The position numbers and the translations under genes are program-made. A DNA stretch of 64,000 bases from Chloranthus sessilifolius (lineage: Eukaryota > Streptophyta > Magnoliopsida > Chloranthales > Chloranthaceae), in the NCBI GenBank assembly GCA_021018995.1, contig CM037587.1, forward strand, positions 5,644,866 through 5,708,865, read 5' to 3'. The notes beneath the pieces are model-generated. The model made no database searches. It worked only from the letters and a program-made list of their open reading frames with translations, and was not told the origin of the DNA. Below, one piece after another: positions 5,408 to 60,770 of the stretch; the first letter of the stretch is position 1, and the number at the start of each line of letters is the position of its first letter.

Positions 5408-6273
5408 TGTAGACCCCCTGTTTTCGCCCTCTCGGAGTATACAAATATGTTCGGTCAACCATTGGCTATGCCCATGACTTTCATAAAGGCCAGCCCTCTC
5501 CAAAATCCCTAAAAAGACAATAATCTGGGGATTGTACATTACACCAAACAATGTACAATTGAGATCCGGGCTGAAATATCAACCTAGGAATTCGAACCCG
5601 AGAAAGGCCCGAAAGATCTCAAATTATGTGCATGAAATGATGTGCATAATTTGATTGTGCGCAGGCCCCCCTGTGCACAATCAATCAAACTTGGATTGGG
5701 CATAGCTTCCGTGCACCTCTTCAGGTTCCAGATTATGCGCATGAAACCTGTGCATAATTCGATCATGCGCGCACCTATGGGCGCACAATCAGTCCATAGT
5801 TGGATTGGAACTATGCTTCTGTAAACCGCCGTAGTCCCGAATTGTGCGCATCCCACCCAGCTCATAATCCGATTGTGCGCAGACCCCCCTGCACATAGTT
5901 CCAAGTGAATTAGAACTAGGACACCCGGCTGAACCAGTCATCGGTCACTCCCGAAGTCGGTGACCGACTCCCGGTGAAATAAACGCATGGTACCATGCGC
6001 ACAATTCAATTATGCGCATGACTTCATGCACATAATTCCCCAGTTGGGCACATGCCCACATGTGCACAATTGCCCGAATACCTATAAATAAGACCCCCAC
6101 CCCACAACCTTCAACACAAATCAATTCTCAAGATTGTTCCTTTTGGAAAATTTGAGGTTCTCTCTGAGGTTTCAAAGAAAGGAGTTGAGCTACACTTTAG
6201 GTTTTTGGTTCCTAAAACTGCAAACTTTTCTCTAGAAGCCTCAAGGTAGTCAAAGCAAGTGGGGCTAACCCAC
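5408..6273 (+). mobile_element. Truncated Tat-like LTR, copy 1
   Basis: Begins TGTAGACCCCCTGTTTTCGC, the TGTAGACACC-type opening common in Tat-lineage LTRs. It is repeated, diverged, at 37,995. From 5615 to 6070 it holds a cluster of imperfect palindromes built from TGCGCA and AATT (for example TGCGCACAATTCAATTATGC near 5997). A TATA box (CCTATAAATA, 6081-6090) follows the cluster. Homology to copy 2 runs to the GTGGGGCTAACCCACT phrase and stops at about 6273, where minus-strand chromovirus copy B begins. The LTR 3' end is missing. Confidence 0.6.
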
Positions 6274-6751
6274 TCGTTCTGTAGAAAAGCGATGTATCCA
6301 CTGCATTCGTTCTTCATCAGATGCTCTACTCGGATCACGGATATCAACGGTACGATAGTCGATTGCGCACCAAAGAATCTGACCGATCTACTCCCATTAG
6401 GGCGAAAAGTAACCATCTTCCTTTTGCAATCGACATTCGCGTTATGCTTGGGAAATTAGTCCATGCCAAGGATCACGTTAAATCGTTGCATGTCGAACAA
6501 GATCAAATCGACTGCTGATTCATGTTCGTCGTAATCTCTGATGGCTACGATAACTGATCGGTACACCGTGTCGGTGCTAATAGGTTTCCCCTTGGGGATT
6601 GACACAGTCAAAATAAAATCCAAAGGCTCGGGAGTCGCTTTCAACTTTTTCGCGAATTGAGGTGTTATAAATGAGTGGGTAGACCCTGGGTCTATCAATA
6701 CTTGAGCCTCGTAGCAATAGTAGTCACTTTCCTTGTACATTTGTAAGGTAC
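6274..6751 (-). pseudogene. Protease region of chromovirus copy B
   Basis: Reading leftward from 6751, the frame resumes after a putative intron and gives an aspartic protease segment with VLIDPGSTHSF, a typical plant chromovirus D-P-G-S/T active-site variant, followed by FNVILGMD (6456-6740). A second frame (6416 to 6280) covers the protease tail, matching copy C around 44,640-44,790. Reverse transcriptase is absent: the element is cut at about 6273 and abuts the Tat-like LTR. At least one frameshift separates the two parts. Confidence 0.7.
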
Positions 6752-6900
6752 CTAAGTTTCGTACATTTAATCTACTTGGATAAAAATAAAGATAAAAATT
6801 ATGTCATTCTCAAGGAGTAGAGTCAAAGACTATTTAATAGGATGCACCTTCTCTCTCTAAAATCTAATAAAGTAGATTAACATCATTTAGGAAGTTATAC
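6752..6900 (-). other. Putative intron between gag and protease, copy B
   Basis: On the minus strand the gag frame ends DVI-stop-G, followed by GTATAACTTC (donor). The interval is 149 bp, AT-rich, and ends ACTTAG. The protease frame then resumes with GTACCTTAC, completing the split glycine codon. Without splicing, the frame stops three codons after the donor. Position and phase equal those in copies A and C. Confidence 0.6.
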
Positions 6901-8330: not shown

Positions 8331-8331
8331 C

Positions 8332-10681
8332 TGTGACAGCTCGAAAACCCGTGCCGTCAGACCGCCCCTGAGGCGATCCGGGAACTCACGAAACACTTGA
8401 CACATCCACACATAAAGCGGAAACAAAGCATATATTCTAACTAAGCAGATAGAGTCATTATAAGGAATTTAAATCTCTAGTTCTATATGAGTGACTACAT
8501 CAGAACCATGATAAAAGACGGTTCTAATTCCATGCAAAAGCACATGGACAAAAGAATCGAACTGAACCACTGGTGACGATCGACCATCACCGAAACATGG
8601 CTCACAAAACAATACTATATGACAATATTACATGAGTTTTAACAAAACTGGCTGAACGTACCAAGCCTTATAGATAATTCTCAAAATAAACACTCGTAGC
8701 GCAACCCATTAGAAGAACTCGTCAAAAGGGGGCTCAGTCTCCTTTGGTATGTACTCTGGGTCCTCAGGATCAATGTCCTCAGTACTCGCGTCTATTCTTG
8801 TATCTGTGACATATAGTCGAGGGATGAGCTAACAGTCTAAGCTCAATAGGGAAACATAAATAACATGCAGATCTTCGCATCACACATATATCTCATAACA
8901 TAATCTAAAACATGCTCTTCTTATAAAGATTCACAATTTAAAGGTATTTAAATTGACACAAAACTGATATTCGATGCATATTTTAAAGCACACAAATCAC
9001 GATTTCTAAAACTTGCTCTTATAACAAAGAAACTTAAATCAATTACTTAAATACAATTTCGAGCATATATAGCATCGAGAGTCACACATATGCCAATGGA
9101 AACCCCAATCATTGTCGTTCAATAAACTATTTTCACAATGTCCAAGCCCCTTCGAATGAGGTGACTTGTGTCGAATGAAGTATTACCACAGATCGGTAAT
9201 CAAAGAACGGATATTCCGCCATACCGAAGCACAATTGTATGGATATCCCGCCGTGTCGATCGCGGATATCCCGTCGTGTCGATCGCGGATATCTCGCCGC
9301 ATCGGTAGGGTATTTATGCACGTGAACCTTAAATCAAAGTATAAAATATAACTTATAGTTTATCACCGTGAATTGTGGTAATTTATACTAGGTTTGAAGT
9401 TTTAACTTTCAAAGCTCACACACACACATGGGCGAATCTTTCTGATTTCTCACATACACATATCTGATTTCACACACAAAAATGTCTTTCAAGGTGCACA
9501 CACATGCATTTTCATGATTGAAACCATGTACGAAATTCACACTTTATTGATGAAAAAATTCATGAACCACACACACTTTCATCACATCACAATATCCATG
9601 CTAGTTGTAATCAAATGCACATGTTATAGAGTTTTCCCTACCTCAATACAGAGCTTACGAAACTTTCCTTGCTCTGAGGTAATTCTCTCAACCCACACTC
9701 CTGGGCACACCTAGAACATATCAATTTCATATCCTATATGTCAGAAGTGACGAAAAATGGGAAGTCCTAAAGTCTTCTCGAATCCCTTTACTAAAATTAA
9801 ACCAAATCTTTGAATCTGTCCAAATCGATCGATCGGTTCCCAAATTGATCGGTCGATTTCCGAAATTGATCGATCGAAATCCATTTCGACTAATCGGTTT
9901 CCCCAAAAATCCACATATCTTGTTGCCACAATCCGATCGATCGGGTACTAATTTCGATCGATCAGTTTTCCTTAGAAAACTTTTGCTCCTTCTCTATTTT
10001 CTTCATTCCGATCAATCAGTGTTCAGACCGATCGGTTTCTCGAAAAACCTTTCACATTTTGTTCTGTCAAAATCGATCGATTGGATACTAATTTCGATCG
10101 ATCGGTTTTGACAGACTCTCAGAAACACAGGTTTATTCACTCTTAACTTATTTTTCTCATTCACACCCACATTTATTATAACTGGGGCATTAATTGCCCA
10201 ACTAAACTATAACTCAAAAGTCCTTACCTCATAAATTCATGGATATATCGTGCTCTTCGATCCAAATTCTGGAAATCCTCGATACTCTATTCACCTCTAA
10301 AGGGTTCGAAATCCAACCTCTCGCGATTGTGTCGCGACACACCCACAACAAATTCTTCCCTTCTCTTCCTTTCTCTCTTCTTTCTTTCTTCCTTCTTTCT
10401 CTTCTCTCTTTCTCTTAGAATTTTGCAAGGGAGTAGCTCACGTGAGAAGCCACTCAACTTAAGCTAACTTCCTTGCTTCCTTGTGAAGCACACGCACACA
10501 ACACTCATCGTTGTTACTTGTGTCGGTTCGCTTACGAACCACTTACATCTAACCTAGGTGTTCGCTCATACACACATATTCACTTGTTGTAACCTTCTAG
10601 GTGACCAAAAACCCAGAATCGTACAGTGCTCATGCCAATACACGTGACATTACACGGTTCCCCAATTTTGGGGATGTTACA
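8332..10681 (-). mobile_element. 5' LTR of chromovirus copy B
   Basis: Bounded on the + strand by TGTGACAGCTCG (8332) and GGGGATGTTACA (10,681), so on the minus strand it runs from TGTAACATCCCC to GTCACA; length is about 2350 bp. It contains (in + coordinates) a block of GGATATCCCGCC-type repeats at 9211-9300 and a cluster of CGATCGATCG palindromes at 9817-10,112. A segment near 9060-9090 (ATATATAGCATCGAGAG) is shared with the LTR of copy C and the deleted element at 26-27.6 kb. The partner 3' LTR is not in this window, so no target-site duplication can be confirmed. Confidence 0.75.
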
Positions 10682-11049: not shown

Positions 11050-12334
11050 TTATCACTCACATAATTTACTAATTTGATGCCCTAAATTAAGTGATGCTAG
11101 TCCGTAGTTTGCTACTAATGATATGTTGATGTGCAAATATTTAAAAAAGTAAGCAGAAAATAGTAGAAATATTAATATATGCCAAAATGAAATAAAAAAG
11201 CAGTAAGAAGGAAGATCACAGAAGAATCAAAGTCAAAACCACCAGTTCAGGAGCTGTCGAGAAAGAATCGTAAAGCTCTAGAATCAATCAAAGAGAAATC
11301 AAGAGCAGAAACAAAAAGAAGATGAAGAGATCGTAATTTACGATTCCACAGAAGAAAGCTCGAGAGATTTACGATTGCTTCTGGGAAAGAATATTGAAGA
11401 GCTTGGTGAGTTACGATTGATTGAGAATTGAAGAAATAAAATCGTAAATACGATTTTATATCTTAAAAGCTTATACTTGCTGCTGAGTCACGATGAGAGT
11501 TGCACCGCCATGTACAGAATCAAGAATTCTAAAATTAGAAGGTTTATACTCTATGGATCTGAGAAGATTGGCAAGAATCTCCGCTACTAGAAATCAGGAA
11601 AGAAGTCCTGTACGTCTCTAACAGAAGAAGGAAAAGAAGGGTTAGAATTAGGAAGTTTAGAATTTTAGGAAACTGTAGTTTTAGAATTTTACTTTGTTTA
11701 GATTCCAAAAAAAATGTAACCGACCCCTTATGAAGCTATAAATAAGAGGGCTCAGCCACCAGATTAAGCATCCTAGAAATTTTGTTCTTAATTGACAACT
11801 AAGTTCGAGAGGTCTAGAGATCAACCCTAGGATAGATTTTATTTTCAATATTTTATTTTGATGCAATTTCCAGCTTTGTAAACAACCAATATTTCTTAAT
11901 TTTAATTGGCGACTAAGATTGAGAGGTTGAGGAATTAAATTTATTTTTCTTGCAAAGTTACTTTCCTGCAATTTATTTTCCTGCATATAAATATTCGAAG
12001 AATTCTAGATTGTGATTGACGGTCATGATCTGGAAGGCTACAAATTAGTCTAACAGTATTTTCAATTCATAGGATTCGAGAGAATTTTAGGTTCTGATTG
12101 ACGACCAAAATATGAAAGACTTGAGAATTTAGTGTAATGGTATTTCAAATTTATTTATTTTCTGCAACATTAGATTAATTAAACCCTTCTTTATTCATTT
12201 TTCTTTATCATTCAAAGGCAAATAGAACTTTTATAGATTAAATCCTTCCTCGTGGGAATGATCCTATACCAGTGCTACAATCTCCTTTGTGCGCTTGCAA
12301 TAGGTTAAGACAAGGAAATAATAAAGTTCGATCA
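11050..12334 (+). repeat. 5' LTR of element 1
   Basis: Starts TTATCACTCACATAATTTAC (the 3' copy starts TGATCAGTCAC) and ends GTTCGATCA. AATCGTAA/TTACGATT palindromic motifs cluster at about 11,263-11,458, upstream of a TATA box (CTATAAATAA, 11,736-11,745). Repeated AATTGACAACTAAG or GACTAAGATTGAGAGG phrases follow in the R/U5 part (11,790-12,120). The tail GTGCGCTTGCAATAGGTTAA is a family signature also seen at 18,143, 35,250 and 53,680. Confidence 0.75.
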
Positions 12335-12340
12335 AGTTTT

Positions 12341-12358
12341 TGGCGCCGCTGCCGAGGA
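12341..12358 (+). other. tRNA-Asp-type primer-binding site, element 1
   Basis: TGGCGCCGCTGCCGAGGA starts six bases after the 5' LTR. It resembles the TGGCGCCGTTGCCGGGGA site used by Athila-type elements, complementary to the 3' end of tRNA-Asp. It supports an Athila-related origin. Confidence 0.75.
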
Positions 12359-14073: not shown

Positions 14074-14089
14074 AATTGAATTCCTCAAG

Positions 14090-14647
14090 GACCCTGTCAA
14101 GCTACCGACTCATTCATAGCAAAAATCTTGTTAAATATGTAAATAGTTTATTTTTCTTATTTTTAGGAAGGAAGTATATTACAATTCAAATCGTGGTAAA
14201 ACACGATCGACCATAAGATACTCTCTTCTGTACACTAGTAGGTTTTGAGTGAACGTATGGATTTACGATCGCTCGTAATCTATCTTTCTTTTTATATTAT
14301 GTTCGACGATCAAATCGTAGTGATTACGATTTGAATCATGGAAGAGCCTGTTCTGTCAGGAGTTGTAATCTCAAATCATAATTTACAATTCTAGGTTACA
14401 TGCGAGTATGGTGACCGGTTTAGCTAGTCACCTTGGAAGTTGAACTCATTTATTTTTAGAGGAAGTGGACACGCATCGCATTCACTACCGCCACCTGTCC
14501 CTACCTAACCCTTAAAATCAAACCCTTCGAAATTTATTTCGACGTGACGTTTCAAACCCTAGCCGTTTCCCTATAAAGCCATGTCTTCACAAACCCTTCT
14601 CATTCAAAACCCATCTATTTCGCCTTTTGTCTCCAATCCCTATTCCC
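14090..14647 (+). promoter_or_regulatory. Internal palindrome cluster and TATA box, element 1
   Basis: Between gag and the extra ORF lie repeated inverted motifs of the LTR type (ATCGTGGTAAAACACGAT, TTACGATCGCTCGTAA and AATCGTAGTGATTACGATT, all between about 14,190 and 14,335). Next come a TATA-like CTATAAAG (14,571-14,578), a pyrimidine-rich leader and the ATG at 14,648. The same order recurs in element 3 (30,990-31,495). Promoter activity is inferred from this order, which parallels element 2 and chromovirus C. Confidence 0.5.
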
Positions 14648-17249: not shown

Positions 17250-18189
17250 TGATCAGTCACATAATTTATTAATTTGATGCCCCTAACTAAGTGATGTTAG
17301 ACCATAGTTTGCTACTAATAATAAGTTGATATGCAGATATTTAGAACAGTAAACAGAAGAGAGTAGAAATGTCAATATATGCCAAAATGAACTCAAAAGG
17401 CAATAAGAAGGAAGATCGCAGAAGAATCGAAGTCAAAACCACCAGTTCAGGAGGTATCGAGAAAAATTCGTAAAGCTCAGAAATCAATCGAAGAGAAATC
17501 GAGAGCAGAAACATAAAGAAAATGAAGAAATCGTAATTTATGATTCCACGGAAGAAAGCTCGAGAGATTTACGATTGCTTCTGGGAAAGAATACTGAAGA
17601 GCTTGGTGAGTTGTGATCGATCGAGAAATGAAGAAATAAAATCATAAATACGATTTTATATCTTAAAATCTTATACTTGCTGCTGAGTCACGTGAGAGTA
17701 GCACTGCCATGTACAAAATCAATAATTATGAAATTAGAAGTTTTATACTCTACAGATCTGAGAAGATTGGCAAGAATCTCTACTACTAGAAATCAGGAAA
17801 GAAGTCCTGTAGGTCTCTAACAGAAGGAGGAAAAGAAGGATTAGAATTAGGAAGTTTAGAATTTTAGGAAACTATAGTTTTAGAATTTTACTATGTTTAG
17901 ATTCCAAAAATAATGTAACCGACCCCTTACGAAGTTATAAATAAGAGGGCTCGGACACTAGAATAAGCATCCTATAAATTTCATTCTTAATTGACAACTA
18001 AGTTCGAGAGGCAAATTGAAAACATTAGATTAATTAAACCATTATTTGTTCAATTTTCTTTATCTTTCAAAGGCAAATAGAAGTTCTATAGCTAAAATAC
18101 TTCCTCGTGGTAATGATCCTATACTAGTGCTGCAATCTCCATTGTGCGCTTGCAATAGGTTAAGACAAGGTAATAATAAAGTTCGATCA
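17250..18189 (+). repeat. 3' LTR of element 1
   Basis: Starts TGATCAGTCACATAATTTAT and ends GTTCGATCA. It aligns with the 5' LTR but lacks roughly 345 bp of the R/U5 part: it jumps from the AAGTTCGAGAGG phrase at 18,000 to ATTAGATTAATTAAACC. The TATA box is at 17,935-17,944. Scattered base differences from the 5' LTR indicate an insertion that is not recent. Confidence 0.75.
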
Positions 18190-21499: not shown

Positions 21500-22972
21500 A
21501 TGTGCGCTTTTAGTTTATGTTGTGTTGCAAGAGGTTCAAAGGCCAGATAAAGGTAAAATGCATTAAAAGTGCAAAGTTAGAAGAAATTCGAAGCAATGGC
21601 AAGAAACCGAAGGAAAAACCAAGGAAGAAATGACAGGTAGGTCATTTCAACCAGTCGAAATGTCATTCTTGACCGGTCGCGATCGATCAGCAGAGAAAGA
21701 GTTCCGAAAGGAAATACAGAAGAAGAAGTCCAAGTGGACTGGTCGAAATGTCTATGTTGACCGGTCAAGAATTCTAGAGCTCCAGAAATGAAGAAATGGG
21801 ACGGTCGAGTATATTTCGACCGGTCAAAACTGAATAGAGACTTGGCAGTTCATGAAGAGTTAATGTTAATCAGTCTAGAACATGAAGTCGACCGGTCAGG
21901 AATTTGAATTTTGAAGCTGAATTGAAGCAATGCTGGCGACCAAATACAATATGAAGGTCGACCGGTCAAGAATCACTCTCAACTGGCCGAGAAAGACTTT
22001 CCAAGCGAAAAACAAGGTTCTCCGATTGTTTTCGATTGGCATCAGGGATCCTCTCCGGATTTCTCTTCTCTAGCTGATTTCTTGGGATCTCTTTAGGGTT
22101 ACTTGTCGTGGATAATGTTCTAGGGCCTTATACATCTATAAATAGGGACCCTAGTTTAGTTTCTAGGTAATTCACACGACAAAGATTTTTTAGAGGGTTT
22201 TTGGCGTGAGTATTCGTAGGTTAGGTTTAGGCTTTAGTTCTGAAATAGAGAGAGATTGAGTGTAATCATCGATCGAGAATCGATTTAACAATGAAGAAAG
22301 TTTTCCGATCGATGCGTGGTTAAACGTTCTAGGCTGAGATCTCTTGAAATTTTCAGATGAGTATATAATAAACTTTTATTTCTTTTTCTATTTTTGAATC
22401 CCGTTTTATAATATGATTGCTTGTTGGAGGTTCTGAGGGTCATCGAGAATGCGCGATTGTAAAAGTTTAATTCTGTTTAGTTTAATCTCAGTGGCCTTGT
22501 AGGGATTGGGGTTGGATTAGATAGGATATTCGCTGACGGACTAGGCCTTGTAGGGTAGTTTTAGTTGGTTACGTGCAATAATTTTGACACTAATGTTTAG
22601 ATCGCTAGAGATTAGACGAATCATATCCGAGGACTAGTCCGTGACTGTGAATAGGGTCTAATCCTTATACGAAGCAATAGAGCTTGTAGCCTGGATTGGG
22701 AGTACCAGGGATTCAATGTGGGAAGGGAATAGGAGGTACGAGTCTGAGATCCAAAAGAGATCTCAGTCTGTCTTCTCATCTCTTATTTCAAAATTAAATT
22801 AAGTTTTCTTTTTATTTTTAGATTAATTTAGGAAATTTTATTTTATAAATTCTTTTCCAATAAAACAGAGATTAGATTGACTAAACGGCAAATCTCTGTG
22901 GTTCGACACCCTTGTACTTGCGCTTGTACATCCGAACTTGTGCACTTGCAAGGTTTATATTTAAAATGATCA
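21500..22972 (+). repeat. 5' LTR of element 2
   Basis: Ends AAAATGATCA at 22,972, followed by a degraded primer site. The start is uncertain (about 21,490-21,530). Paired GACCGGTC palindromes lie between 21,640 and 21,970, followed by a TATA box (CTATAAATAG, 22,136-22,145) and a U5-like end with TTGCGCTTGTACATCCG-type sequence (22,918-22,935). This is a different family from element 1. Confidence 0.6.
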
Positions 22973-24939: not shown

Positions 24940-25521
24940 GATTTTGATCGGTCGAAACTAATTTCGACCGGTCAAAAGGCTTAGAGAATACAGGAAGGAA
25001 CATAATTTTGATTGGTTGAGATCATCACGACAGGTCAATAATATTAACATAACAGAAAACAGAGTTTCTGTTGTGTTCCAACCAGTCAAAATAGGGTTTC
25101 TGACCGGTCGACGCTGAGGACTTATGCTTCAGAACAGAAGTTATTAGACCAATTAATTTTGATCCTATTTTGTCGACCGGTCGAGCCGATTTCAACTGGT
25201 AGGGTCCCAAAGGTTTTAGGGCTATATAAATCCCTAGGACCGGTCGAAATTTTCAGTCGACCAGTCTAGAACTCTAGTTTCTGTTCTTCTGTGTTCTCTG
25301 AGTTCCCGCGTGAAAATGCTTTGACCCTTTTTTATTTTTACGCCACTTCATCTTCCTCCAAGCATTGTCGACAGCTACTCTGCGTTCCGCATTGCTATGC
25401 CTATAAAAACAATGCGAGGTCGATAATCTTCCTTCTTCGGCTGCAATCACCAAGCTCCACGCTTCAAGGGCAGTTTCTCGAATTTTATTTCCATTTTTGT
25501 TAGTTTAGATTTTGTGTATAA
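24940..25521 (+). promoter_or_regulatory. GACCGGTC cluster and TATA box before extra ORF, element 2
   Basis: From 24,945 to 25,265 there are about five pairs of GACCGGTC-type palindromes, often arranged as two copies 12-16 bases apart (for example around 24,949-24,975). They are the same motif as in this element's LTR. A TATA box (GCTATATAAA, 25,221-25,230) lies inside the 3' end of the cluster. A pyrimidine-rich leader follows, then the ATG at 25,522. The arrangement looks like a second, internal promoter; activity is inferred. Confidence 0.55.
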
Positions 25522-44319: not shown

Positions 44320-47300
44320 GTACTTTAACTATATATGAAAAGGGATGCTTTGTTGGATATGACGCTAGAGTGTTGATAGACCCAGGGTCTACCCACTCAT
44401 TCGTCACTCCACGTTTCGCCAAGAAGATGAAGATTGTTCTATTCGTGTCTATTCTATCTATTTGGAGAGTTAGTAGACACGGAGTTAGCTTGCAAATCCA
44501 TCATTGTAGCAGTTCGAGACCTAGAGGTGCACGAATTGGAAGCAAAGTTGATATTGTTAGACATGCAAAGGTTTGATGTGATCCTTGGCATGGACTGGTT
44601 GGCGCAGCATTGTGCAACTGTCGATTGCAAGAACAAGGTAGTCATTTTCAGACCCAACACAAGAAGATCATTTCGGTTTCAAGGAGTGAGGTCGTCATCT
44701 GTGCCACTGATCTCAGCAGTAAGGGCCGAGAAAATGATCAGAAAGGGTTGCAGTGGATACTTGGCTTTCTTAAAGGAGGACAAGGAAGAAAAGAACGTTT
44801 ACGAGATAGCATGAGCGAGACTTGCCACGGTTTCGGAAGAATTGTCTGGATTACCTCCAGAAAGAGAAGTAGAATTCGCCATCGACTTAGCACCGGGAAC
44901 GAAGCCTATTTCGAAAGCGCCATATAGAATGGCTCCTGCTGAGTTAAAGGAGTTGAAGGAACAACTGCAAGAACTTATGGACAAGGGGTTTGTTAGACCG
45001 AGCGTGTCTCCATGGGGAGCATCGGTCTTGTTTGTCAAGAAGAAGGATGAGTCAATGCGGCTATGCATTGACTATCGACAATTGAACAAACTCACTGTGA
45101 AGAACCGCTACCCTTTGCCTAGAATTTACGTTCTATTCGATCAACTGCAAGGAGCAAGGTATTTTTCCAAGATCGACCTGAGATCTGGATATCATCAGTT
45201 GCGAGTCAAGGCAGAGGACATCCAGAAGATAGCTTTCCGGATACGGTATGGACACTATGAATTCCTTGTGATGCCGTTTGGGTTGACGAATGCTCCGGCG
45301 TCGTTTATGGATCTGATGAACCGAGTGTTTAAACCACACTTGGACTCCTGCGTCGTAGTATTCATTGATGATATGTTGATATACTCCAAATCCAAGACGG
45401 AGCACGAAGAACATTTGAAGATTGCTCTACAGACGCTACGAGAACACCAATTGTCTGCCAAACTCAGCAAATGTGAGTTTTGGTTGGAAGAGGTTAGCTT
45501 TTTGGGACATGTCGTCTCAAAGCATGGTGTCACTGTAGATCCAGCAAAGATAGAAGCAGTGATTAAATGGGAGCAACCAAAGACCGTGACCGATGTCCGA
45601 AGTTTTCTGGGCTTAGCAGGCTATTATCGACGTTTCGTTGAGGGGTTTTCAAAGATATCGGGACCTCTCACAAAGCTGACACGAAAAGATTCAAGATTTG
45701 AGTGGAGTGAGGCATGCGAGAAGACTTTTCAAGAACTCAAAACGAAACTCACTTCGGCTCCAGTGCTAGCGATTCCTTCAGGCAGTGGAGGATACGCCGT
45801 GTACAGCGACGCATCATACAATGACCTTGGTTGTGTACTCAACCAACACAAGAAGGTGATAGCTTACGGATCAAGACAACTGAAAGAACACGAGAAAAAT
45901 TATCCGACTCATGACTTGGAACTAGCAGCTAGCTCATTTTGTAAGATTTGGAGACATTACGTATGGTGAGACTTTTGAAATTTTCACCGATCATAAGAGC
46001 CTCCGATACTGCATTTACGTAAAGAGCTCAACATGAGACAGTGCAGGTGGATGGAATTCCTCAAGGATTACGATTGCTCCATACAATACCATCCAGGCAA
46101 GGCAAATGTAGTAGCCGATGCATTGAGTCGGAAGGGTTTAGCTCAGTTAGCTTGTTTGGTTTTGGGTATGCACCGATGGAAATTATTGGAAGACCTGGCA
46201 TTCTACGATGCGAACATTGAGTCAAAAGCCACCGGATCCTTTTTGGCTAACATATCGGTAAAGCCAGTGATATTTGAGCATATCCACGATCTACAGATAA
46301 AAGATCCGGCATTAACAAAGATTCATCAAGACGTGAGTGAAGGCATCAGGTCGGACTTCTCAGTTAAAGAAGATGGTTCTTTATTGTTTAAGGGCCATCT
46401 ATGCATTCCGGACAATGCCGATCTAAGACGAACCATTCTTGATGAAGCCCATAAGTCAAATTATGCTGTCCACCCTGGTAGCACCAAAATGTACCAAGAC
46501 TTGAAAAAGAACTACTGGTGGAGAGGGTTGAAACAAGACGTGGCCAAATATGTGTCACAGTGTTTGACTTGTCAGCAAGTGAAGATTGATCATAGACATC
46601 CTGCTGGACTATTGCAACCTTTACCAATCCCAGAATGGAAGTGGGAATCGATCTCAATGGATTTCATTGTTGGATTGCCCCGTACTGCCAAGGGACACAA
46701 TGCCATTTGGGTCGTCGTAGACCGATTGACCAAATCAGCGCACTTTTTGCCGTATAATACTATGTATACGGCAGAAAGACTGGCAAACTTATACATGAAA
46801 GAGATCGTAAGGTTACATGGGATTCCAAGTAGCATAGTTTCAGATCGTGATCCACTATATACATCCAAGTTTTGGAAGAAATTTCAGGAAGGAATGGGAA
46901 CACGACTAGACTTTAGTTCAGCTTTCCATCCTCAAACTGATGGGCAGACAGAGCGAGTGAACCAAGTGATAGAAGACATGCTCAGAGCGTGCATGCTAGA
47001 TATGCAAGAATACTGGGACGAGTATCTACCATTGCTCGAATTTGCATACAACAATAGTTTCCAAACGAGCATTGGCATGGTTCCGTATGAAGCTCTGTAT
47101 GGACGACGATACAAATCACCCCTCAATTGGGAGGAAACAGGTGAGAAATTTATTTTAGGGCCAAAACTACTTGAAGACAACGCCACAGTCATTCGAATAA
47201 TTAGAGAAAGGCTGAAGTCAGCACAGAGTAGACAGAAAAGTTACGCCGACATGAAGCGGACTAGCGTCGACTATAAAGTGGGTGAGCACGTGTTTGTGAA

Positions 47301-47676
47301 AGTGTCACCTATGAAAGGCGTAATGAGATTTGACAAGAGCGGGAAGTTAAGCCCACGTTATGTTGGACCATTTAAAATTTTGGGATGCGTAGGTGAAGTT
47401 GCGTATCGCATTGGCTTACCACCGCTGTTTGATCGGGTACATAACGTTTTCCACGTATCAATGCTTAGAAAGTATGTAAATGATCCATCTCATGTGTTAG
47501 GAAAACAACCTATGGAGATGTGTGAGGACATGAGCATGATAGAGGAACCAGTGGAAATCTTGGATCGAAAGGAACAAGCATCACAGACTAAAGTGATTCC
47601 CTTAGTGCTTGTTCGGTGGAACAATCATCCAAAAGAAGAGGCTACTTGGGAACGAGAGGCCGATGTGAAAGAATAA
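44320..47676 (+). pseudogene. Chromovirus C pol: protease, RT, RNase H, integrase
   Basis: Protease: VLIDPGSTHSF near 44,370, then FDVILGMDWL; one frameshift near 44,440 and an in-frame TGA at 44,812-44,814. Reverse transcriptase (open 44,842-45,969): [19 protein letters not shown], then the catalytic [10 protein letters not shown] near 45,361. RNase [14 protein letters not shown] near 45,805; a compensated pair of frameshifts affects 45,966-46,032. Integrase (open 46,033-47,676): zinc-binding H-H-C-C ending CLTCQQVK, core Asp residues in SMDFIVGLP and VSDRDPLY, the DGQTERVNQ glutamate, a GPF motif, and a C-terminal chromodomain-like tail (VLVRWNNHPKEEATWERE). RT and integrase are long and well preserved; only a few lesions inactivate the polyprotein. 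Confidence 0.9.
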
Positions 47677-48912
47677 TATCCAGCCTTGTTTCCAATGACG
47701 TGAGAATCCAATGTAAACCATAAGCATGTTTGTGAAATCTCCACAATACTTGTAATTCAATGGAAGTTTCGATCAAAAATATGATTAAAGGAACAGATTT
47801 TGTATGTACATGACCAAGTGAATGTGTTTTTATGGAACTATGAGCCACTTGATGTCATAAACTGCCAAAAGTAATTAAAGAACCAAAGAACTTGGAAATC
47901 TGTAGAAATTGGGCAAAATCGATTAATCGAATTTCAAATCGATTAATCGATTTTGTTCGATTAGTCGACTGGCATGTGCCAGTGACTGGAAATTGAAATG
48001 AGAGTTAGAACAGACACAGAATACAATTTCGATTGATCGATTTATAATTTCGATTAATCGATTTGGGATCGATTAATCGATTTTGGGAATTCGATTAATC
48101 GAATTGGGAATTTGATTAATCGAACTACATGTTCGATTAAATCGAATATACTGGAAATGTTAGAAGAAATTAGGAAGGAATTAATGAAGATTCGATTAAT
48201 CGAGGAGGCTTCGATTAATCGATTTGAGATCTCGATTAATTGAACTGGATGTTCGATTAATCGATTTACTTAAGGGACTTAGGAAAAATTTGGAGTCAGA
48301 GAAACAATTTCGATTAATCGATGTGGAATTCGATTAATCGATTTGAGATTTCGATTAATCGAACCATAGTTCGACTAATCGAATAACTTAAAGAATCCTA
48401 AAAATTTTGGAAGGGACTGCACGATTTCGATTAATCGAAGTGAATTTCGATTAATCGATTTTGAAATTTCGATTAATCGAAATGGATTTCGATTAATCGA
48501 CTGGCTCGCGCCAGTGAGCTCTAAAACTTAAATTTTTAAACGGATACGATTTCGATTAATCGATTTTGACTTTCGATTGATCGATTTGGGAAATCGATTA
48601 ATCGATTTTACGCGGCTTAACCTAGTTTTGAATCTCGATTAATCGATTCTGAATTTCGATTAATCGAGCCGGGGCCTATATATATAAATTTGGGGATTTT
48701 CTTCCCCATCCGAAATCATTTCAGCTTGAAATTTTGGGCGCTTTAGCTTCTTCTTCTTCTCCTACCATCCGGCGCCCTAGGGTTCCCTTCTCCGTTGGTT
48801 TTTCGGCTTGTATTCGAGTTGTATCGCCTTCAAACCCACGGTAAACCCTAATTTCATACTCTTCTTTCAATTTGAATTAGGTAAAACCTAGTTTAAGCTT
48901 ATTTCACCAACC
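47677..48912 (+). promoter_or_regulatory. CGATTAATCG array, TATA box and leader before extra ORF
   Basis: From 47,917 to 48,668 there are about twenty copies of CGATTAATCG or one-base variants, irregularly spaced 10-70 bp apart, the same palindrome as in this element's LTRs. Ten bases after the last copy comes a strong TATA box (CTATATATATAAAT, 48,676-48,689). Next follow a pyrimidine-rich leader with a TTCTTCTTCTTCTCC run (about 48,750), and an ATG at 48,913. The layout resembles a complete internal promoter; activity is inferred. Confidence 0.6.
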
Positions 48913-50467
48913 ATGCCGTCCAAAACCCGGTTGTCTTTGAAGAAGGCAACCTCTAAGCTACCGGTCCGGCGTAAGAACGCCGCACCACCTCCACATACCC
49001 CATCGCCGGTGAGGACTCCATCACCATCGGCATCGGAGACCACCTCCGGTTCGACGAGCGCATCTTCGTGCGAGTCTTCCCGCGAATCGACCCCCATGCC
49101 CCCACCACCCACTAACGTTGTGCAACCAAATGAATGGTGGGCCGCAAAGACATTTGAGGTCGAGTACCTCATTGACCCTACCCTCTTCACAAATCCCGAT
49201 GTACCGGGCGAGACCCAATGGGCTCGAAATTACCTCAACATGCCGGTCTCGGCAATCTTCTCAAACCAATTCGGGGTTCTTACTACCCTAGATTGGTGAG
49301 ACTATTTTACCAAGGGCTAGTGGACGGCTCGACTGACGATGTGATCAAGACCACCATCGAGGGTCGAGAGTACACGATCACTCGTCGTCACATACACGAG
49401 GTGCTTGAATGCTACCTCGACTTTACCCCCGAGACCACCCTCTTCCCACCCTTTGAAGAGGAAGTGAGATTTGAAGAGATCATGACCCGCATGACAAACG
49501 GGAAAAAGGGGTAGGGATCTTCCATCAAGAGGGTCGACCTTCCCCACTACATGTGGATGCTTGATTCCATTATCAAGTGTAATCTCTATCCGTTGCGGCA
49601 CGACACCGAGCGGATAGATGTAGTGCAGCAGGAACTATATGCGGCCTTTTGTGGCCGGTGGTTCGACGCCACCATGCTCATCCTAGAGGGGATGAGATAT
49701 ATAAAAGGGAAATTAATGAAGGGCAATTTGAGGCCCAAGGAGAAAATGCCGTATGCTCGGTTGATCTCGAGCATGTTGGAGTGTCACGTATCGCCCACGA
49801 GGTGCGCGACGGGTGAAGACGTTCTCAAAGTCTTCATGGACCCGTAGCTACAACCTGCTCAAGCGGACCCTACTGCTCGGGTCCCGTCCCGGCCCAAAGA
49901 AGAAGAAGAAGCAGCAGTTGCACCGCCACCACCCCCACCCCCACCAAAGGCCAGAGACCCACCTGGGTGGCACACCCAGAGCCATCAGTGGAGAGGGCTA
50001 CCTCTCACACAGCAGCCTCACCGACACCGCCAGCTCACTCCGCGCCCGCTACACCCACATCATCATACCGTCGGCGCACAGCTTCATCCGGACCTACCAT
50101 CGAGGAGGTGTTGGCACGTATGGAGGCCAACAATGAGCGGATGAACCGGAGGATGGACTTCCTTCTGTTCCATACCCTCCGCTACATCTACCCGACCGAC
50201 TACCGCCGCTACCTCGCTCAGGAGGAGGAGTGGACTGCTGGACGCACCGCCTTCCACCGAGGACCCGTTTCCATCCCACCACCGCCACTACTGACGCGAC
50301 TCCTTCCACATCTACATCCGCACCGCCGCCACTACCTCCTCAAACTACCCACCAAAGACAGTCTCCACCACCAGCCAGCCGGCCCACAGACCCGCCAGAT
50401 TGCCATAGCACCGTCATTTCAGATCGAGCGATCTGCACCATGCACCACCAAGGCGAGGGACTACTGA
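48913..50467 (+). pseudogene. Extra ORF downstream of pol, chromovirus C
   Basis: Starts at the ATG at 48,913 with a basic, Ser/Pro-rich tail (MPSKTRLSLKKATSKLPVRR), then a domain spread over overlapping frames: WWAAKTFEVEYLIDPTLF, YYPRLVRLFYQGLV, EGREYTITRRHIHEVLECYL, LPHYMWMLDSIIKCNLYPLR, LYAAFCGRWFDATMLILEGM. Frameshifts lie near 49,290 and 49,820, and an in-frame TAG near 49,512. The C-terminus is Pro-rich with a helical IEEVLARMEANNERMNRRMD. It resembles the uncharacterised 'putative plant transposon protein' domain and matches the second half of the element 2 extra ORF. It has no gag or pol motifs. Extra ORFs downstream of pol are known in plant Ty3/gypsy elements, mostly of the Tat lineage. 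Function unknown. Confidence 0.6.
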
Positions 50468-50750
50468 GTCTTGTATTGATTTGAGTTTTCTTGTATAGCT
50501 GTAGATTATTTTGTACGCCAACTCATGTGGCGCCTTGTACACTTTTCAGATATTAATAGAAATCCAAGTTTTTTTGTGTGCATTGTTTCAATTCGTTAAA
50601 TTTACTTCTATGCTTGTGTTTGTGAACACCTAAATGAGTCTAAGTCAACTGGACCACCTCACCTGCGAGTGTGGGGGGGGGGGGGAAGAGACCCTGACCT
50701 ACGCACCCTTGGGTTATTTTCGAGGACGAAAATTCCCAAGGTGGGGAGGA
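50468..50750 (+). other. 3' untranslated region and polypurine tract, copy C
   Basis: After the extra ORF come AATAGAAA-type sequence (50,555), a G-run (about 50,671-50,685), then CGAGGACGAAAATTCCCAAG and the purine tract AAGGTGGGGAGGA (50,738-50,750), which directly abuts the 3' LTR and would prime plus-strand synthesis. Confidence 0.75.
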
Positions 50751-53221
50751 TGTAATATCCCGAAAAAAATCGCGTTAAACAGTGACCTCAGGATTCGTGC
50801 CTGATTGGTCACAAGTTTGACCAATTAGGAGATCAAGGGTTAACATAGAGTGTGATGAACGGACGAGATGTGATGGTTTGAGTAATTATGTGGTGTGTGA
50901 TATGAATGAGAAGTTGCATACACCTACCGCGGTGTATGTGCTCAACACACAAGGAAGAGGAGAGATAAAAGGGTTTAATAACCCTAAATGTGTGTTTTTG
51001 GGTTGTTGAGAGAAGAGTAAAGAAGAGAGAGAGAGGAGTAAAGAAGATTAAACAAGAGTTATTGTGTGATTGGAGGGGGATTCTAGTATTAAAGAGACCG
51101 ATTCAATGAGAGGAATCCGTTTAAGCAAAGGCTGGAACCCTAGCCTTTCCAACCACTCGATTGAAATCAATTTGAGATTGATTGAAGGTAAGATTTTTGT
51201 AGTTTAAATGCATGGATTAGAAGGGTGAATAGTGGCTAGAAATATTGTGAAATGTAGGACAAAGGTTTAGAAAAATGGAAGGAAAAAGTAAGGGAAAAGA
51301 TTGGGAAGAACAGTCAGAAAAGGGCTGAATCTGGCAATTTTGATTAATCGAAATTGGGTTTCGATTAATCGAAATTGGCCAAGAAGTTGAAAAGTCAAAG
51401 GACCCCGATCTCGATTAATCAAATTGAGTTTTGAATAATCAACTTTGGATTTCGATTAATCGAATTTGAAATCGATTGATCGACTGGGAACCCACAGTGA
51501 ACTCCAGTGAAGAAAAGAATTGGGCTTGATGAAATCGACAAATCGATTTTGGAAATTCGATTACTCGAATTGAGAATCGACAGGATAGAGTAGGGAATTT
51601 CGATTAATCGAATTGGGTTTCGATTAATCGAATGGGAATCTCGATTAATCGATTTGAGAATCGATTAATCGATATTGACTTTCGATTAAATCGATTTTGG
51701 AAATCGATTAATCGAATCAGATTCGATTAATCGATTTTGGAGTTCGATTAATCGACTGGGCTAGTTTTTGTTGACTTTTGAGTTTGACTTTAAGATTCTT
51801 GGAGGGTCTTGGACCTCCTTTATTGCATCTTTAGTGATGTGTTTCACATGTTATGTGGTACCATAGGTGGTACGTGTGAGCTAGTGCACAAGGAGCCACG
51901 TGGGACCTTGATGCATTGATCAAACGAAGACTTGAGGTAGGGAACACCTTGAACATGTACTTTATTTTACAAGAGCATGTATGTAGTGATATAGAATTCA
52001 ATTCAAAATGTCTTTATTGCTTAAGAATTGTGAAAAGTGTGTGTGCGTGACATCCATAAGAGTAATTATAATGAACCATCCCCAGGGGATGAGGAAGTAA
52101 AGAGATAAGAGCATCATGTGTGATGCAAATGAATGGATACATCCCAGGGATGTATCCAAGATTGGATCATGTTTGATAGGGCCTAACTGATATAAGATAA
52201 CACATTTATACGGTGAATAACTATATGTAAGGCACTGATATTTTTATTATTTGAGGTTTGATAGGGTACCCCACCGACGTGGCGGGATATCCACGACTGA
52301 CACGGCAGGATATCCGTGACCGATACGGCGGCGAAACCGTAGGCCAGTGCGGAGGCTTATCCGTACACAGTAAGCACACCCCAGGGGTGTTGATTTGAGA
52401 CAAGTGAAACCCCGCCACCAATCCCCAGGGGAAAGGGGCTTGGGTACTATATTGTATTCCCAGGGAATACGTTAAAAGTGTCTATATAGATGACGATGAT
52501 GGGTATCTCATCGGGGCTCGATGCTATATTGCTCGGGGATTACTTAAGTTGAAAGTTTAAGTTTTGCTTTAGGCCTTTTCAGCATCATTCATGAATAAAT
52601 GAAAACATAAGTAATTATCAGTAAAATGCAATGCTTTTTAACTGTTTTCATCAATAACTGCATAGACACATCATGCATGGCATATCATGGAATATATGTG
52701 AGTAATAATTTATATGTTCAACTGTGTTTTGTTCCCTATTGAGCTAGGATGTAGCTCACCCTATAGACTATACGTCGCAGGTCCACTACTAGCAGCTGCC
52801 GAGGCTTCAGGAGACGCTGACCCCGGTGAGTCGGACCTTGCGGCCGGCGAAGAGTTGGAGCCACCTCCTGAGGACTCCGTTGTGGCGCTTTGAGGACTTT
52901 TTGATAAAGATTTGTACGGCTTGGTATGTCAAGCCTTGTTTTGGTTGAACAATGTATATATTGGGTTTTGGGATTATTCTTTTGGGGCGAACCATCCATG
53001 ATGATTGCTATCATCGATGGTTCGGATCGGTTCTCCATTCATGCAGAGGCATGAGGGTAGAACTGTCTTTTGAGAAATGCTTTTTTATAGATTTAAATTC
53101 CGCAGTTTCATTTACTACTTTTTGCTTGTTATACCAATGTTCCGTGCTTAGCTAAGGGGCACGGTCAAGATGATCGTGCTGATGGCACGGGTTTCGAGGT
53201 GCCGAAATCCGGGCTGTCACA
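50751..53221 (+). repeat. 3' LTR of chromovirus C
   Basis: Starts TGTAATATCCCG and ends GGGCTGTCACA. Compared with the 5' LTR it lacks a block with three palindromes (5' positions about 40,995-41,055). It also has an extra segment with two palindromes near 51,716-51,755, and it keeps about 30 bp before 51,340 that the 5' copy has lost. The GGATATCC block is at about 52,283-52,335. Confidence 0.9.
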
Positions 53222-57989: not shown

Positions 57990-60040
57990 ACCTCGGCTGC
58001 AGGTGCCGCAGGAATGACCTCACAGGCTAGATTGGTGATGGTCTCGACTGACTTAATGGGACCATCGTCTGAGAGCTCGAGAGCATGTCGACCATTAACG
58101 GTGTTTGGTACTACTGGACATGATTTTCCCTATCAGTCAAGTCCCCACAAACCGTCGCCCTTTGCCACGAATGTGAGCTCAAACCCGACAACATGTAGGC
58201 TCTCCATGACGCCTCGTAAACTCTACAGCTTGCCATTCTCTCTTGCATCTCCTTCATCTCAGTGTCCAATGATTTTCCCTATCAGTCAAGTCCCCACGAG
58301 CCGTCGCCCTTTGCCACGAATGTGAGCTCAAACCCGACAACATGTAGGCTCTCCATGACGCCTCGTTAAACTCTACAGCTTGCCATTCTCTCTCGCATCT
58401 CCTTCATCTCAGTGTCCAATGCAATGTAGAAACGGTCAAAGGCCCGGGCTGATGCAGTTTCTGATGAAGCCCTCCGACAAGTCTCAAGAACAGCCACTGC
58501 ACCGGACAAGTCCCCCTCCTCGACTAAGGCTTGTGCCTCTGCCATCGCCTCAGCAGCTTGGAGCCTATTCCTCTCTCTGTCCACCTCGATTGAGGCTTCA
58601 CGGGCCTCAGCAACTACTGGACGCCCAATTCTAACCTCATTTTCCAAATTTACCGTTATTTTGAGACAGGGTCTCTGTAAGCACACCCAATTGTCATCAA
58701 TGTCACTATGTTGCCTGCTGGTACGCTGACGGATACCAGAAAGTTTTTTTCTTCGTCTGCATAAAAACTCATTGCATTGATGGATCCCCTCCGCCCATCT
58801 TCGATCACACGGCTGGTGTAACTTCCCGATTTGATTGGTACGAGGCTTACACTGGGGTTCATGCACCCCAATTCAACATGCAGATCCTGCCCCACAACAC
58901 TCAAGAGCCCACCAATACACTGAAAATGCATCCTGGATAGCAGCCTCAGCCTTGATGAATGAGCACGTCCCTCCAGATGTCTCTGATATTGAGTGCATCG
59001 AAGTGGCATCATGGTCGGTGCCGAAACCAAATGCATGGACCGGAATTTGAGAAGCCAAGCCAATGCCACGAATGGAGTAAGGGAGCAGAGATCCATAGTC
59101 TGGTCATGGTTGGTGGGATCCATTAGGGCCAGAGACGGTGTACCTGCCCTGGCCAGTCTATAGCAGTATACTGCTGCAAACGGGGTTCTTCTCCCTTCGC
59201 TCTTCCATCACCTTGGCTCCCTTCCTCAGGCCTTCAGTAATGTTGGTCCCTCCATTAGAGAGATCAGAGAATTCACACCTGGGAGTGTCTGCTGCCGGCC
59301 AGAATCTGACATTCAACGAAAGGGGAAAAGTCGGTGTTCCATCAATGAGAAGGATACCACTGAAAGTCGATCAGACGGGCTGAGATTTTGTATCACAAAC
59401 CCCATGGCTCGTTTTAGCAAAGCAAGTTTGGTGCCTGCCATGCTTCCACTTACATCAAGAATTGTGATGAGGTCAACTGGTGCACGGGCATTAGCTTGAT
59501 TACTTGTTACCGGAGCTTTGAGATTGATCAGGACGGTAAAGTTATCGTGTGACATAGACTGTGGAATCGTCGTCAAGTCCTGGTATGCTCTGATCTCTAC
59601 TATTTTACTGGAGTAGGACTGGGTAGCATCTTTGGTTGAAGAGATCTTGTCTTCATTTTCAGCCTGCGGTCTAAACATTCGTCGTCATTGAAAATAGTCG
59701 GCTCGGTGCTGTCAAAGGAACCATGAAATAGAGAATTGATGCTTCGATTGGAATTGGATCGAGCAGGAGGGAGACGATGTAGTATGGTCATGTAACCATC
59801 ATCTTGTGCCCAATCTACTACTGGGCTTATTCGTGCTCTTCCATCGGAAGAGGGGTTGCCTTTGAAGGGGATTTCTTTCCATTTGGCTCTGCAAACCGAA
59901 CAAATTTGGTTTCCATGTTTTACATTGGAAGCAATCCAATGGAAATGGAAAACGTGGGTGCATTCCGCGGTGAATATGCCATGGCATGGCCTTGGCCGGG
60001 TTTCATGGAGCCCAGACATATAGCACATGTTTTCTGCAAG
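57990..60040 (-). pseudogene. WAV3-like E3 ubiquitin ligase (RING + VWA), broken
   Basis: Minus strand, opening after a CTTGCAG acceptor near 60,040: an H2-type RING (TCAICL-like start reading TCAICLGS, ECTHVFHFH, ICSVCRAKW; 60,035-59,880), a linker (EPTIFNDDECLD), a VWA domain with the metal-site motif DVSGSMAG (about 59,440), KRAMGFVIQNLSPSDRLSVV, then FGFGTDHDATSMHSIS, a Vwaint-like part (IGGLLSVVGQDLHVELGCMN) and a helical C-terminus (EASIEVDRERNRLQAAEAMA). In Arabidopsis, WAV3 and its relatives are RING E3 ligases affecting root gravitropism. Frameshifts lie near 59,685, 59,345 and 58,912, a stop interrupts the C-terminus, and a 149-bp tandem duplication near the end also shifts the frame. 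The family's first exon was not found. Confidence 0.85.
58121..58419. repeat. 149-bp tandem duplication in the WAV3-like C-terminal exon
   Basis: Units 58,121-58,269 and 58,270-58,419 both run from TGATTTTCCCTATCAGTC to TCAGTGTCCAA and are nearly identical (AAACC versus GAGCC, CTTGC versus CTCGC, one extra T in the second). On the gene strand each unit encodes the same stretch (EMKEMRERMASCRV and the following segment). Because 149 is not a multiple of three, the duplication itself breaks the frame. Confidence 0.9.
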
Positions 60041-60108
60041 TTAAAGCATGCAAGATAACAAAGATAAGATGGTAGAAATTCTGAATGAAGAACAAATTTC
60101 TTCGTTAT

Positions 60109-60770
60109 TGATCAGGGCCAATTAGTTACACAAATTAGCCACCAAACTTGTATTGCTAAGACTTGGAGTAGGTTAGGAATAGGATATTAACGTGTTTGTG
60201 TGTTTGTAGGAAGTGAATCCCCAAGGAGCAGAATGGAGAACGATTGGCTGCAAGAAGTTCTCAAAGGAAGCTGAAACAGATATAGCTCGCTCAAGCGAGA
60301 AACGTTGAAAGATCACTAAAATTATCTAGTGAAAGTCGCTTGAGCGACTTTGGTTCTCGCTCGAGCGACTTCACGCGATTAGAGCTTCTGTTGACAGTTT
60401 TATGGCAGCCCTACACCACAACGTATATATAGAAGTTAGAGAGGAGGAGGAGGAGACTTCTGGAGGCTGAAAAGAAGACAGAGAAACTCATAACTCTTTA
60501 AGAGGAAGGATTGAAGAGATGAAACATTCTATGGAAAAAAATTTCATGCATGATTAAATCTACGTTCTAAGGGAGTAACGAAGCGTAGCTTCGTGTTGAG
60601 GGTTTGTAATTGCATAGGTTATGCTTGTATACACTACTTTAATCTATAATGAAATAGCATTCTTATAGAACATTATTCATTTCTATCTTTTTCTTTGAGA
60701 TTTCTTGTAGAAACAAGAGTAGCGATAGATACCTTTTGGTTAATCTCAGATCTGCGATCAGAAATCAACC
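60109..60770 (+). other. LTR-like promoter region with TCGCTCGAGCGA palindromes
   Basis: No ORF. Three 12-bp palindromes (TCGCTCAAGCGA, TCGCTTGAGCGA, TCGCTCGAGCGA) lie between 60,281 and 60,371, followed by a TATA-like ACGTATATATAGAAG at 60,421 and a transcript-like leader to about 60,720. TGATCAGGG (60,109) and GCGATCA (about 60,770) would make TG...CA termini, but the flanks GTTAT and GAAAT do not match. It is possibly an old solo LTR, perhaps Copia-type. Confidence 0.35.

What the first reader, a model, noticed from the sequence alone, without database searches (positions are those of the whole stretch)
5615..60371. Six LTR families each carry clusters of their own short palindrome
Seen: CGATCGATCG in LTR B (9817-10,112); GACCGGTC in element 2 (21,640-21,970 and 24,945-25,265); CGATTAATCG in chromovirus C (40,794-41,226, 47,917-48,668, 51,341-51,758); AATCGTAA/TTACGATT in element 1 (11,263-11,458, 14,190-14,335, 17,460-17,660); TGCGCA- and GCGTATAATT-type inverted repeats in the Tat-like LTRs (5615-6070, 38,110-38,555); TCGCTCGAGCGA at 60,281-60,371. 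The motifs differ between families but share size (8-12 bp core), self-complementarity, CpG content and clustering. They occur in chromovirus, Athila-like and Tat-like elements, which suggests convergent evolution of family-specific operator-like arrays. I know no formal description of this as a common feature.
Basis: partly seen in the sequence, partly recalled or inferred. Interest (0 to 1): 0.87.

Follow-up and report, generated by a model that had tools for sequence, protein, structure and literature searches.

The report
Family-specific palindrome arrays in plant retrotransposons
Several plant jumping-gene families carry rows of their own short self-complementary DNA word near their promoters, and in the best-studied pair the word differs along with an extra gene beside it, which suggests that such a family may make a protein that recognises its own sequence.

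Summary
The arrays are real. In the window, 10 of 12 named arrays hold a repeated 8-letter word that none of 300 shuffles matched. Genome-wide, CGATTAATCG occurs 251,711 times against 665 for its reversed control. Two arrays of element 1 fail the test.

The layout goes beyond the finding. In chromovirus C the array lies in both LTRs and again upstream of a TATA box and an extra ORF remotely related to Pfam Transposase_32; 12 of 12 further copies that I fetched show internal and 3' LTR arrays. In a sister family the word is mainly TCGACTAGTCGA instead of TCGATTAATCGA, in LTRs and internal promoter alike. Array type followed extra-ORF type in 30 of 30 arrays, but this is one clade split. Four related chromovirus LTR types carry four different words at one LTR slot. 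The extra ORF shows purifying selection.

Best reading: DNA-level operator arrays, probably bound by the element's own extra-ORF protein. No binding was tested. The kind is known: Sirevirus (Ty1/copia) 'repeated motifs' in LTRs and upstream of ENV were published in 2010. Its presence in Ty3/gypsy with ORF-linked motif change I did not find in my ten searches.

The parts
40226..42709 (+). 5' LTR of chromovirus C
   Evidence: 94% match to 50753-53221 over 2,514 columns
40811..41227 (.). TCGATTAATCGA array, 5' LTR of C
44815..47676 (+). reverse transcriptase, RNase H, integrase and chromodomain ORFs of C
   Evidence: Pfam RVT_1, RT_RNaseH_2, Integrase_H2C2, SH3_Tf2-1, rve, Chromo (rve and Chromo below cutoff)
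47917..48668 (.). TCGATTAATCGA array upstream of the extra ORF of C
48677..48688 (+). TATA box, 21 bp after the start of the last palindrome
48913..50470 (+). extra ORF of C, broken here; pieces 48892-49299, 49176-49514, 49515-49847
   Evidence: Transposase_32 E 2.5e-5 on one of three pieces, below curated cutoff; open frames in other copies
50753..53221 (+). 3' LTR of chromovirus C
51341..51757 (.). TCGATTAATCGA array, 3' LTR of C
9817..10112 (-). CGATCGATCG array in LTR B, a reverse-strand chromovirus-type LTR starting near 10,682
21640..21970 (.). GACCGGTC array in the 5' LTR region of element 2 (LTR ends not determined); TATA at 22137
24945..25265 (.). GACCGGTC array upstream of the extra ORF of element 2; TATA at 25223 lies inside it
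25522..28361 (+). extra ORF of element 2, broken and interrupted by what looks like a reverse-strand solo LTR at about 26041-27671
   Evidence: ORF 27552-27968 hits the extra-ORF profile at 3.3e-11, the C piece at 1.5e-5 by tblastn
11263..11458 (.). AATCGTAA/TTACGATT half-site array in the 5' LTR of element 1; TATA at 11737
14190..14400 (.). weak internal half-site cluster of element 1; TATA at 14572, short ORF from 14648
   Evidence: not significant
17460..17660 (.). 3' LTR counterpart in element 1
   Evidence: not significant
5615..6070 (.). Tat-like LTR, half-sites such as TGCGCATAATT in both orientations; TATA at 6083
38110..38555 (.). Tat-like LTR, half-sites GCGTATAATT in both orientations; TATA at 38561
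60281..60371 (.). three TCGCTYRAGCGA sites, TATA at 60424; host element not identified

Best explanation
The arrays are DNA-level binding sites in plant LTR retrotransposons: one set in the LTR and, in the families with an extra ORF, a second set of the same motif directly upstream of that ORF's own TATA box. The most likely reader of the sites is the extra-ORF protein itself, acting as a dimer on the dyad. It would thus regulate its own promoter and the LTR promoter of its own family, either as an activator or, as VANC proteins do for VANDAL transposons, by keeping the family's copies free of silencing. Motif and protein then change together, giving each family a private site. Shown: arrays, their two places, purifying selection on the ORF, fixed TATA geometry, association of ORF class and motif class in one sister pair. 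Inferred: binding, dimerisation, promoter activity, and direction of the effect.
For: Internal array upstream of the extra ORF and array in the 3' LTR in 12 of 12 C-type copies that I picked from 150 scored hits. TATA starts 21 bp after the start of the last palindrome in 26 of 30 arrays although the spacer sequence differs between classes; 1 at 20, 3 unscored by the script. In the C internal array the 12-mer has 25 copies with up to 2 mismatches; the best word overlapping sites by at most 6 bases has 11, mean 2.1; L014 internal 16 against 8, L014 LTR 19 against 9. Sister family L014: CTAG centres in LTR and internal arrays together, integrase 92% but extra-ORF pieces 67-72% identical. Array class fits ORF class in 30 of 30 arrays: 16 TTAA, 14 CTAG; a further locus, L068, had no array in the stretch and is dropped. 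dN/dS of the ORF core 0.129-0.174 in 6 pairs between classes and 0.066-0.172 in 14 of 15 pairs within C. The Athila-like element 2 has a homologous ORF (3.3e-11; 1.5e-5) behind its own motif; 7 of 14 fetched relatives show that array, each above all 200 shuffles. Locus L026 has pol, a TCAATCGATTGA array and a related ORF (5.4e-5) in that order. Four motifs at one chromovirus LTR slot, 541-560 bp before a shared box.
Against: No binding, expression or methylation data. The 30 of 30 fit is essentially one switch on one tree, so it does not prove co-evolution. No known DNA-binding domain came out of the Pfam or PDB searches, and Transposase_32 scores 30.5 bits against a cutoff of 45. L024 has the ORF but no significant exact-word array, and L028 only a weak one, 4 of 200 shuffles. 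Of 14 element-2 relatives, 7 lack the array at the sampled place. Tat-like LTRs and the chromovirus LTR in L025 have arrays with no such ORF seen here. In C I saw no TATA just behind the LTR array, unlike the internal one. The column information was taken at sites chosen by similarity to the motif, which favours the motif; the word control is clear for the internal array but weaker for the C LTR arrays (14 against 12 and 13 against 12). dN/dS used only open-frame copies, which leans to low values; one within-C pair gave 0.726 (dS 0.089).
Confidence: 0.5

Rival explanations
1. Host transcription factors bind the arrays; the element merely accumulates sites for a host dimeric factor, and each family uses a different factor.
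For: Dyad sites in arrays near a TATA box are typical of host-factor enhancers (recalled). 12 of 13 Sirevirus motifs share CGG-CCG across monocots and eudicots, and PLACE matches there were mainly stress-related. Arrays also occur where no extra ORF was seen: Tat-like LTRs, L025.
Against: The motif class follows the extra-ORF class in 30 of 30 arrays, and the second array lies at the ORF promoter; a host factor gives no special reason for either.
Confidence: 0.25
2. The palindromes act as RNA structure: transcripts fold into stems that serve packaging or dimerisation, or are cut to small RNAs by the host, as reported for maize Sireviruses (Bousios 2016, not held; as cited in PMC10760457, passages seen).
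For: The C internal array folds at -283.2 kcal/mol against a mean of -182.5 for 20 shuffles, z -15.5.
Against: Any array of one palindrome folds so. RNA pairing does not need 19-22 bp spacing or a TATA box 21 bp from the last site. Hybrid CTAA sites outnumber the TTAG sites they would pair with in 13 of 13 CTAG arrays.
Confidence: 0.12
3. Plain tandem-repeat growth by slippage or unequal exchange; palindromy is incidental.
For: Arrays show 21, 41, 62-63 and 84 bp periods, and in the C LTR arrays some words reaching into the linker are nearly as frequent as the motif. Tandem arrays between pol and the 3' LTR occur in about half of recently active Retand elements (PMC11963269, abstract and passages).
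Against: In internal arrays linker words have decayed while motifs have not. In 200 kb of sampled genome 12 palindromic 8-mer clusters (9 bins) against 2.2 expected from other clustered words and 1 mirror-symmetric control; for 10-mers 8 (7 bins) against 0.32 and 0.
Confidence: 0.05

Closest known systems
Sirevirus repeated motifs (RM), Bousios et al. 2010, PMC2829016 (abstract and passages, sections 9 and 10)
   Same: Family-specific palindromes, mostly with CpG, 8-32 per element, in the LTR upstream of a TATA box and again upstream of the extra (ENV) gene; the four elements without ENV have no copies in the linker.
   Different: Those are Ty1/copia, and the paper reports the motif absent from the classic elements it compared. 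Here C is a Ty3/gypsy chromovirus and element 2 is Athila-like, the extra ORF is Transposase_32-like, and motif class follows ORF class.
VANDAL transposons and VANC anti-silencing proteins, Hosaka et al. 2017 PMC5735166 and Sasaki et al. 2023 PMC10398659 (passages)
   Same: Short motifs in arrays in the element's own noncoding regions, motifs differing between related families, tandem-repeat evolution, and an element-encoded protein (there shown to bind).
   Different: DNA transposons; the VANC21 motif YAGTATTAY is not palindromic; VANC carries DUF1985 and DUF287, neither of which was hit here; binding and demethylation are shown only there.
Additional ORFs of plant LTR retrotransposons, incl. 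sunflower Athila with partial Transposase_32 similarity (PMC11728184, passages; PMC7264820, passages)
   Same: Extra ORF between pol and 3' LTR, Transposase_32 match, predicted nuclear location in sunflower Athila; an own promoter is reported for maize Grande gene23 (antisense).
   Different: The word palindrome does not occur in the main text of either. PMC12844716 (passages) only raises the question whether such ORFs modulate their elements' methylation, next to VANC.

Membership tests
Sirevirus RM system | Ty1/copia Sirevirus pol | tested here: not met
   C has RVT_1, Integrase_H2C2, SH3_Tf2-1 and a chromodomain after integrase, a Ty3 arrangement
Sirevirus RM system | Palindromic motif, at least eight copies, clustered in LTR | tested here: met
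   C: 12 and 9 perfect 10-mers in the two LTRs; fewer perfect copies in LTR B and element 2
Sirevirus RM system | Further copies upstream of an extra gene between pol and 3' LTR | tested here: met
   C and 12 of 12 fetched copies, L014
Sirevirus RM system | CGG-CCG core (12 of 13 elements there) | tested here: not met
   centres TTAA and CTAG within TCGA flanks; element 2 has CCGG, not CGG-CCG
VANC/VANDAL anti-silencing | Array of short family-specific motif in own noncoding DNA plus an element-encoded extra protein | tested here: met
VANC/VANDAL anti-silencing | DUF1985 or DUF287 domain | tested here: not met
   Pfam scans of ORF pieces and of one open frame report neither
VANC/VANDAL anti-silencing | Protein binds motif and removes DNA methylation | not testable with these tools
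   no binding or methylation data held
Transposase_32 (PF20167) extra ORF | Score above Pfam curated cutoff | tested here: not met
   30.5 bits against 45, E 4.1e-7, profile 4-150 of 177; remote relative only
Chromovirus with extra 3' ORF | Ty3 integrase with chromodomain, LTRs, ORF after integrase | tested here: met
   chromodomain E 4.1e-5, just under cutoff

The most novel reading that the evidence does not exclude
Plant Ty3/gypsy retrotransposons carry self-addressed regulator-operator systems: a Transposase_32-like protein made from its own promoter recognises a family-private palindrome array there and in the LTRs, and protein and motif co-evolve, much as VANC and its targets do, so that closely related families ignore each other. 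Sirevirus RM plus ENV would be the Ty1/copia counterpart.
Probability: 0.4. Interest if true: 0.9.

Novelty: new variant of a known kind. Interest (0 to 1): 0.72.

Why it matters
The papers seen say that the functions of extra ORFs of plant LTR retrotransposons are unknown. If such proteins bind these arrays, each ORF comes with its own predicted target site, so the question becomes a direct binding test; it would also suggest that sequence-private self-regulation or anti-silencing is general among plant transposons, not a VANDAL speciality. In this genome one such motif alone is present a quarter of a million times, a large pool of identical sites for any protein that reads it.

Tried and rejected
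Tried without result: protein database searches with the piece 49515-49844 and with the open frame of L038 (the 8,000 best candidates scored) found no homologue; the collection may hold few plants. PDB by sequence: one chance-level row, E 0.52. Structure prediction was not run: the tool's list of allowed sources does not name loci from the fetch from genomes, and the window's own ORF is broken. Genome-wide counts for TCGATCGATCGA (asked many times) and TCGACCGGTCGA (asked once) did not complete.

Considered and rejected: one satellite inserted by chance (the words differ and sit at fixed places); pure composition effect; all families independent. L027 looked like another LTR case, but its reverse-strand reading resembles an Ulp1-type protease by eye (recalled, not searched), so possibly a DNA transposon.
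Full report
What was checked. A palindrome-cluster scan against 30 block-wise dinucleotide shuffles found at most 3 copies of any palindromic 8-mer within 400 bp in shuffles, but 5 words with 5 or more in the window, one of them in 12 copies.

Is palindromy special? In 20 10-kb stretches taken at round positions of contigs C1-C10, clusters of at least three copies gave 12 palindromic 8-mers (in 9 bins) against 2.2 expected if clustered words were random and 1 mirror-symmetric word; for 10-mers 8 (7 bins) against 0.32 and 0 (its filter for simple words also drops TCGATCGA clusters in L025 and L027 that one search lists). Eight of the 20 stretches contributed. Motifs not seen as clusters in this window include CGACTAGTCG, CGCTCGAGCG, CAATCGATTG, GATACGTATC and ATCGGCCGAT. 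Genome-wide, CGATTAATCG has 251,711 matches against 665 for its reversed control, and TCGACTAGTCGA 5,483 against 29. Of the latter only the first sites on C1 are listed; among them one LTR-internal-LTR triplet (C1:11.3067, 11.3139 and 11.3170 Mb) is followed by one more internal-LTR pair, while other listed clusters stand alone.

Anatomy of chromovirus C. LTRs 40226-42709 and 50753-53221; RT to integrase with chromodomain 44815-47676. Between integrase and 3' LTR lies a second array (47917-48668), then TATATATATAAA at 48677, then an ORF from 48913, broken in this copy. One of three pieces matches Transposase_32; an open frame of another copy matches it at E 4.1e-7 over most of the profile, below Pfam's cutoff. 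A genome search with one 110-residue piece scored 150 of 33,974 candidates, many in open frames of 300-600 residues. I fetched 12 of these: all 12 have 17-26 sites of the form TCGANNNNTCGA upstream and 10-20 downstream where the 3' LTR lies, mostly with TTAA in the centre.

Signs of selection on DNA sites. Across 27 C arrays and 577 sites the commonest spacings are 21, 20, 19 and 22 bp. At sites chosen by similarity to the motif, motif columns of C arrays carry 1.6-2.0 bits and linker columns 0.1-1.0 (internal) or 0.4-1.4 (LTR); in L014 some centre columns fall to 1.0-1.1. Because that choice favours the motif, I counted copies of every 12-letter word in the same way: in the C internal array the motif has 25 copies and the best word overlapping sites by at most 6 bases has 11 (mean 2.1); L014 gives 19 against 9 (LTR) and 16 against 8 (internal); in the two C LTR arrays the gap is small, 14 against 12 and 13 against 12, though the means are 2.5. 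Mismatches gather at the CpG positions and the centre. The internal TATA box starts 21 bp after the start of the last palindrome in 26 of 30 arrays, 20 bp in one; of three that the script left unscored, L035 conforms and L037 lies closer by the sequence, and L061 ends too early.

Motif turnover. Locus L014 proved to be a sister chromovirus (integrase 92% identical over 518 residues) whose LTR and internal arrays both have mainly CTAG and CTAA centres, with some TTAA. Its extra ORF is open for 411 residues stop to stop and 72% and 67% identical to that of C in two pieces. A genome search with it gave 150 scored of 35,952 candidates, falling into a class at 86-100% and a class at 74-77%, with one at 81%. 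Internal arrays fetched for 17 hits: 12 of 13 of the first class have CTAG arrays, one (L068) has no array in the stretch; the 81% hit has CTAG; 3 of 3 of the second class have TTAA. With the window, L014 and L029-L040, 30 of 30 arrays fit their ORF class. This is one evolutionary split, so it supports but does not prove co-evolution. dN/dS of the ORF core, in open-frame copies only, is 0.129-0.174 in 6 pairs between classes and 0.066-0.172 in 14 of 15 pairs within C, one recent pair 0.726.

One slot, four words. Five chromovirus-type LTR copies (two of C, one each of L014, LTR B and L025) share a GGATATCC box; their arrays end 541, 541, 557, 560 and 545 bp before it, with four different motifs. 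Shared sequence is long for C and L014 (80% over 2,440 columns) and C and L025 (75% over 395) but short for LTR B (83% over 65 with C, 71% over 150 with L014). A sixth LTR at about 26041-27671 shares the box but has no array that I recognised.

Other lineages. Element 2 is Athila-like (gag at 23478-24296; lineage by resemblance of its primer-binding region, recalled), with an array that has a TATA inside, then an ORF from 25522. Its later piece matches the C piece at 1.5e-5 and a profile of the chromovirus extra ORF at 3.3e-11; L024 matches that profile at 2.2e-18 and L026 at 5.4e-5 (the profile contains an L028 row). A search with this piece scored 150 of 30,419 candidates at 52-100% identity, many with stops; of 14 upstream stretches fetched, 7 hold 4-7 near-copies of GACCGGTC, each above all 200 shuffles, and 7 hold none. 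L026 shows pol, a TCAATCGATTGA array (none of 200 shuffles as extreme) and the ORF in order. L028 is weak (4 of 200) and L024 is not significant (195 of 200 at k=7, 200 of 200 at k=8). The two Tat-like LTRs have half-site arrays just before TATA; I did not look for an extra ORF there.

Literature. Sirevirus RMs are the closest known case. I found no description of such arrays tied to the extra ORF in Ty3/gypsy elements in those listings and the passages read; the library lacks most subscription papers, and Bousios 2016 and Sasaki 2022 were not held.

Verdict. A real and ordered feature, repeated across the genome, known in kind from Sireviruses, apparently new in Ty3/gypsy with ORF-linked motif change. 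That the extra-ORF protein reads the array is the best-supported mechanism but is untested.

Noticed in passing
35293-36285 (-) and 19150-19862 (+): Plant mobile domain (PF10536) ORFs lie among these retrotransposons.
   Followed up: no
11052-18011 and 21640-28446; L024: gag is followed by the array or extra ORF with no pol seen; with the C reverse transcriptase as query, the only match in the window is C itself (which did find distant RTs in L012, L023 and L026). Possibly a class of pol-less elements that keep gag and the extra ORF.
   Followed up: partly
L027:7714-7974: ATCGGCCGAT array with spacing near 21 bp beside a reverse-strand reading that looks like an Ulp1 protease by eye; possibly a DNA transposon with the same kind of array.
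   Followed up: no
L024:2070-2330 (-), L028:440-870: Several TCGCGA/CTCGCG-like words upstream of the extra ORF, seen by eye; exact-word test not significant in L024 and weak in L028.
   Followed up: partly
L014 and L056-L067, L069: Hybrid CTAA sites outnumber TTAG sites in 13 of 13 CTAG arrays, an orientation bias that a symmetric dimer does not predict.
   Followed up: no
5615-6070 and 38110-38555: Two related Tat-like LTRs (80% match over 854 columns just before them) have half-sites differing at one base, AATTATGCGC and AATTATACGC: another possible motif shift.
   Followed up: no
58366-59681 (-), 62221-62622 (-): WAV3-like C-terminal (below cutoff), VWA and PPR matches: host-gene-like sequence near the 60,281 cluster.
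   Followed up: no
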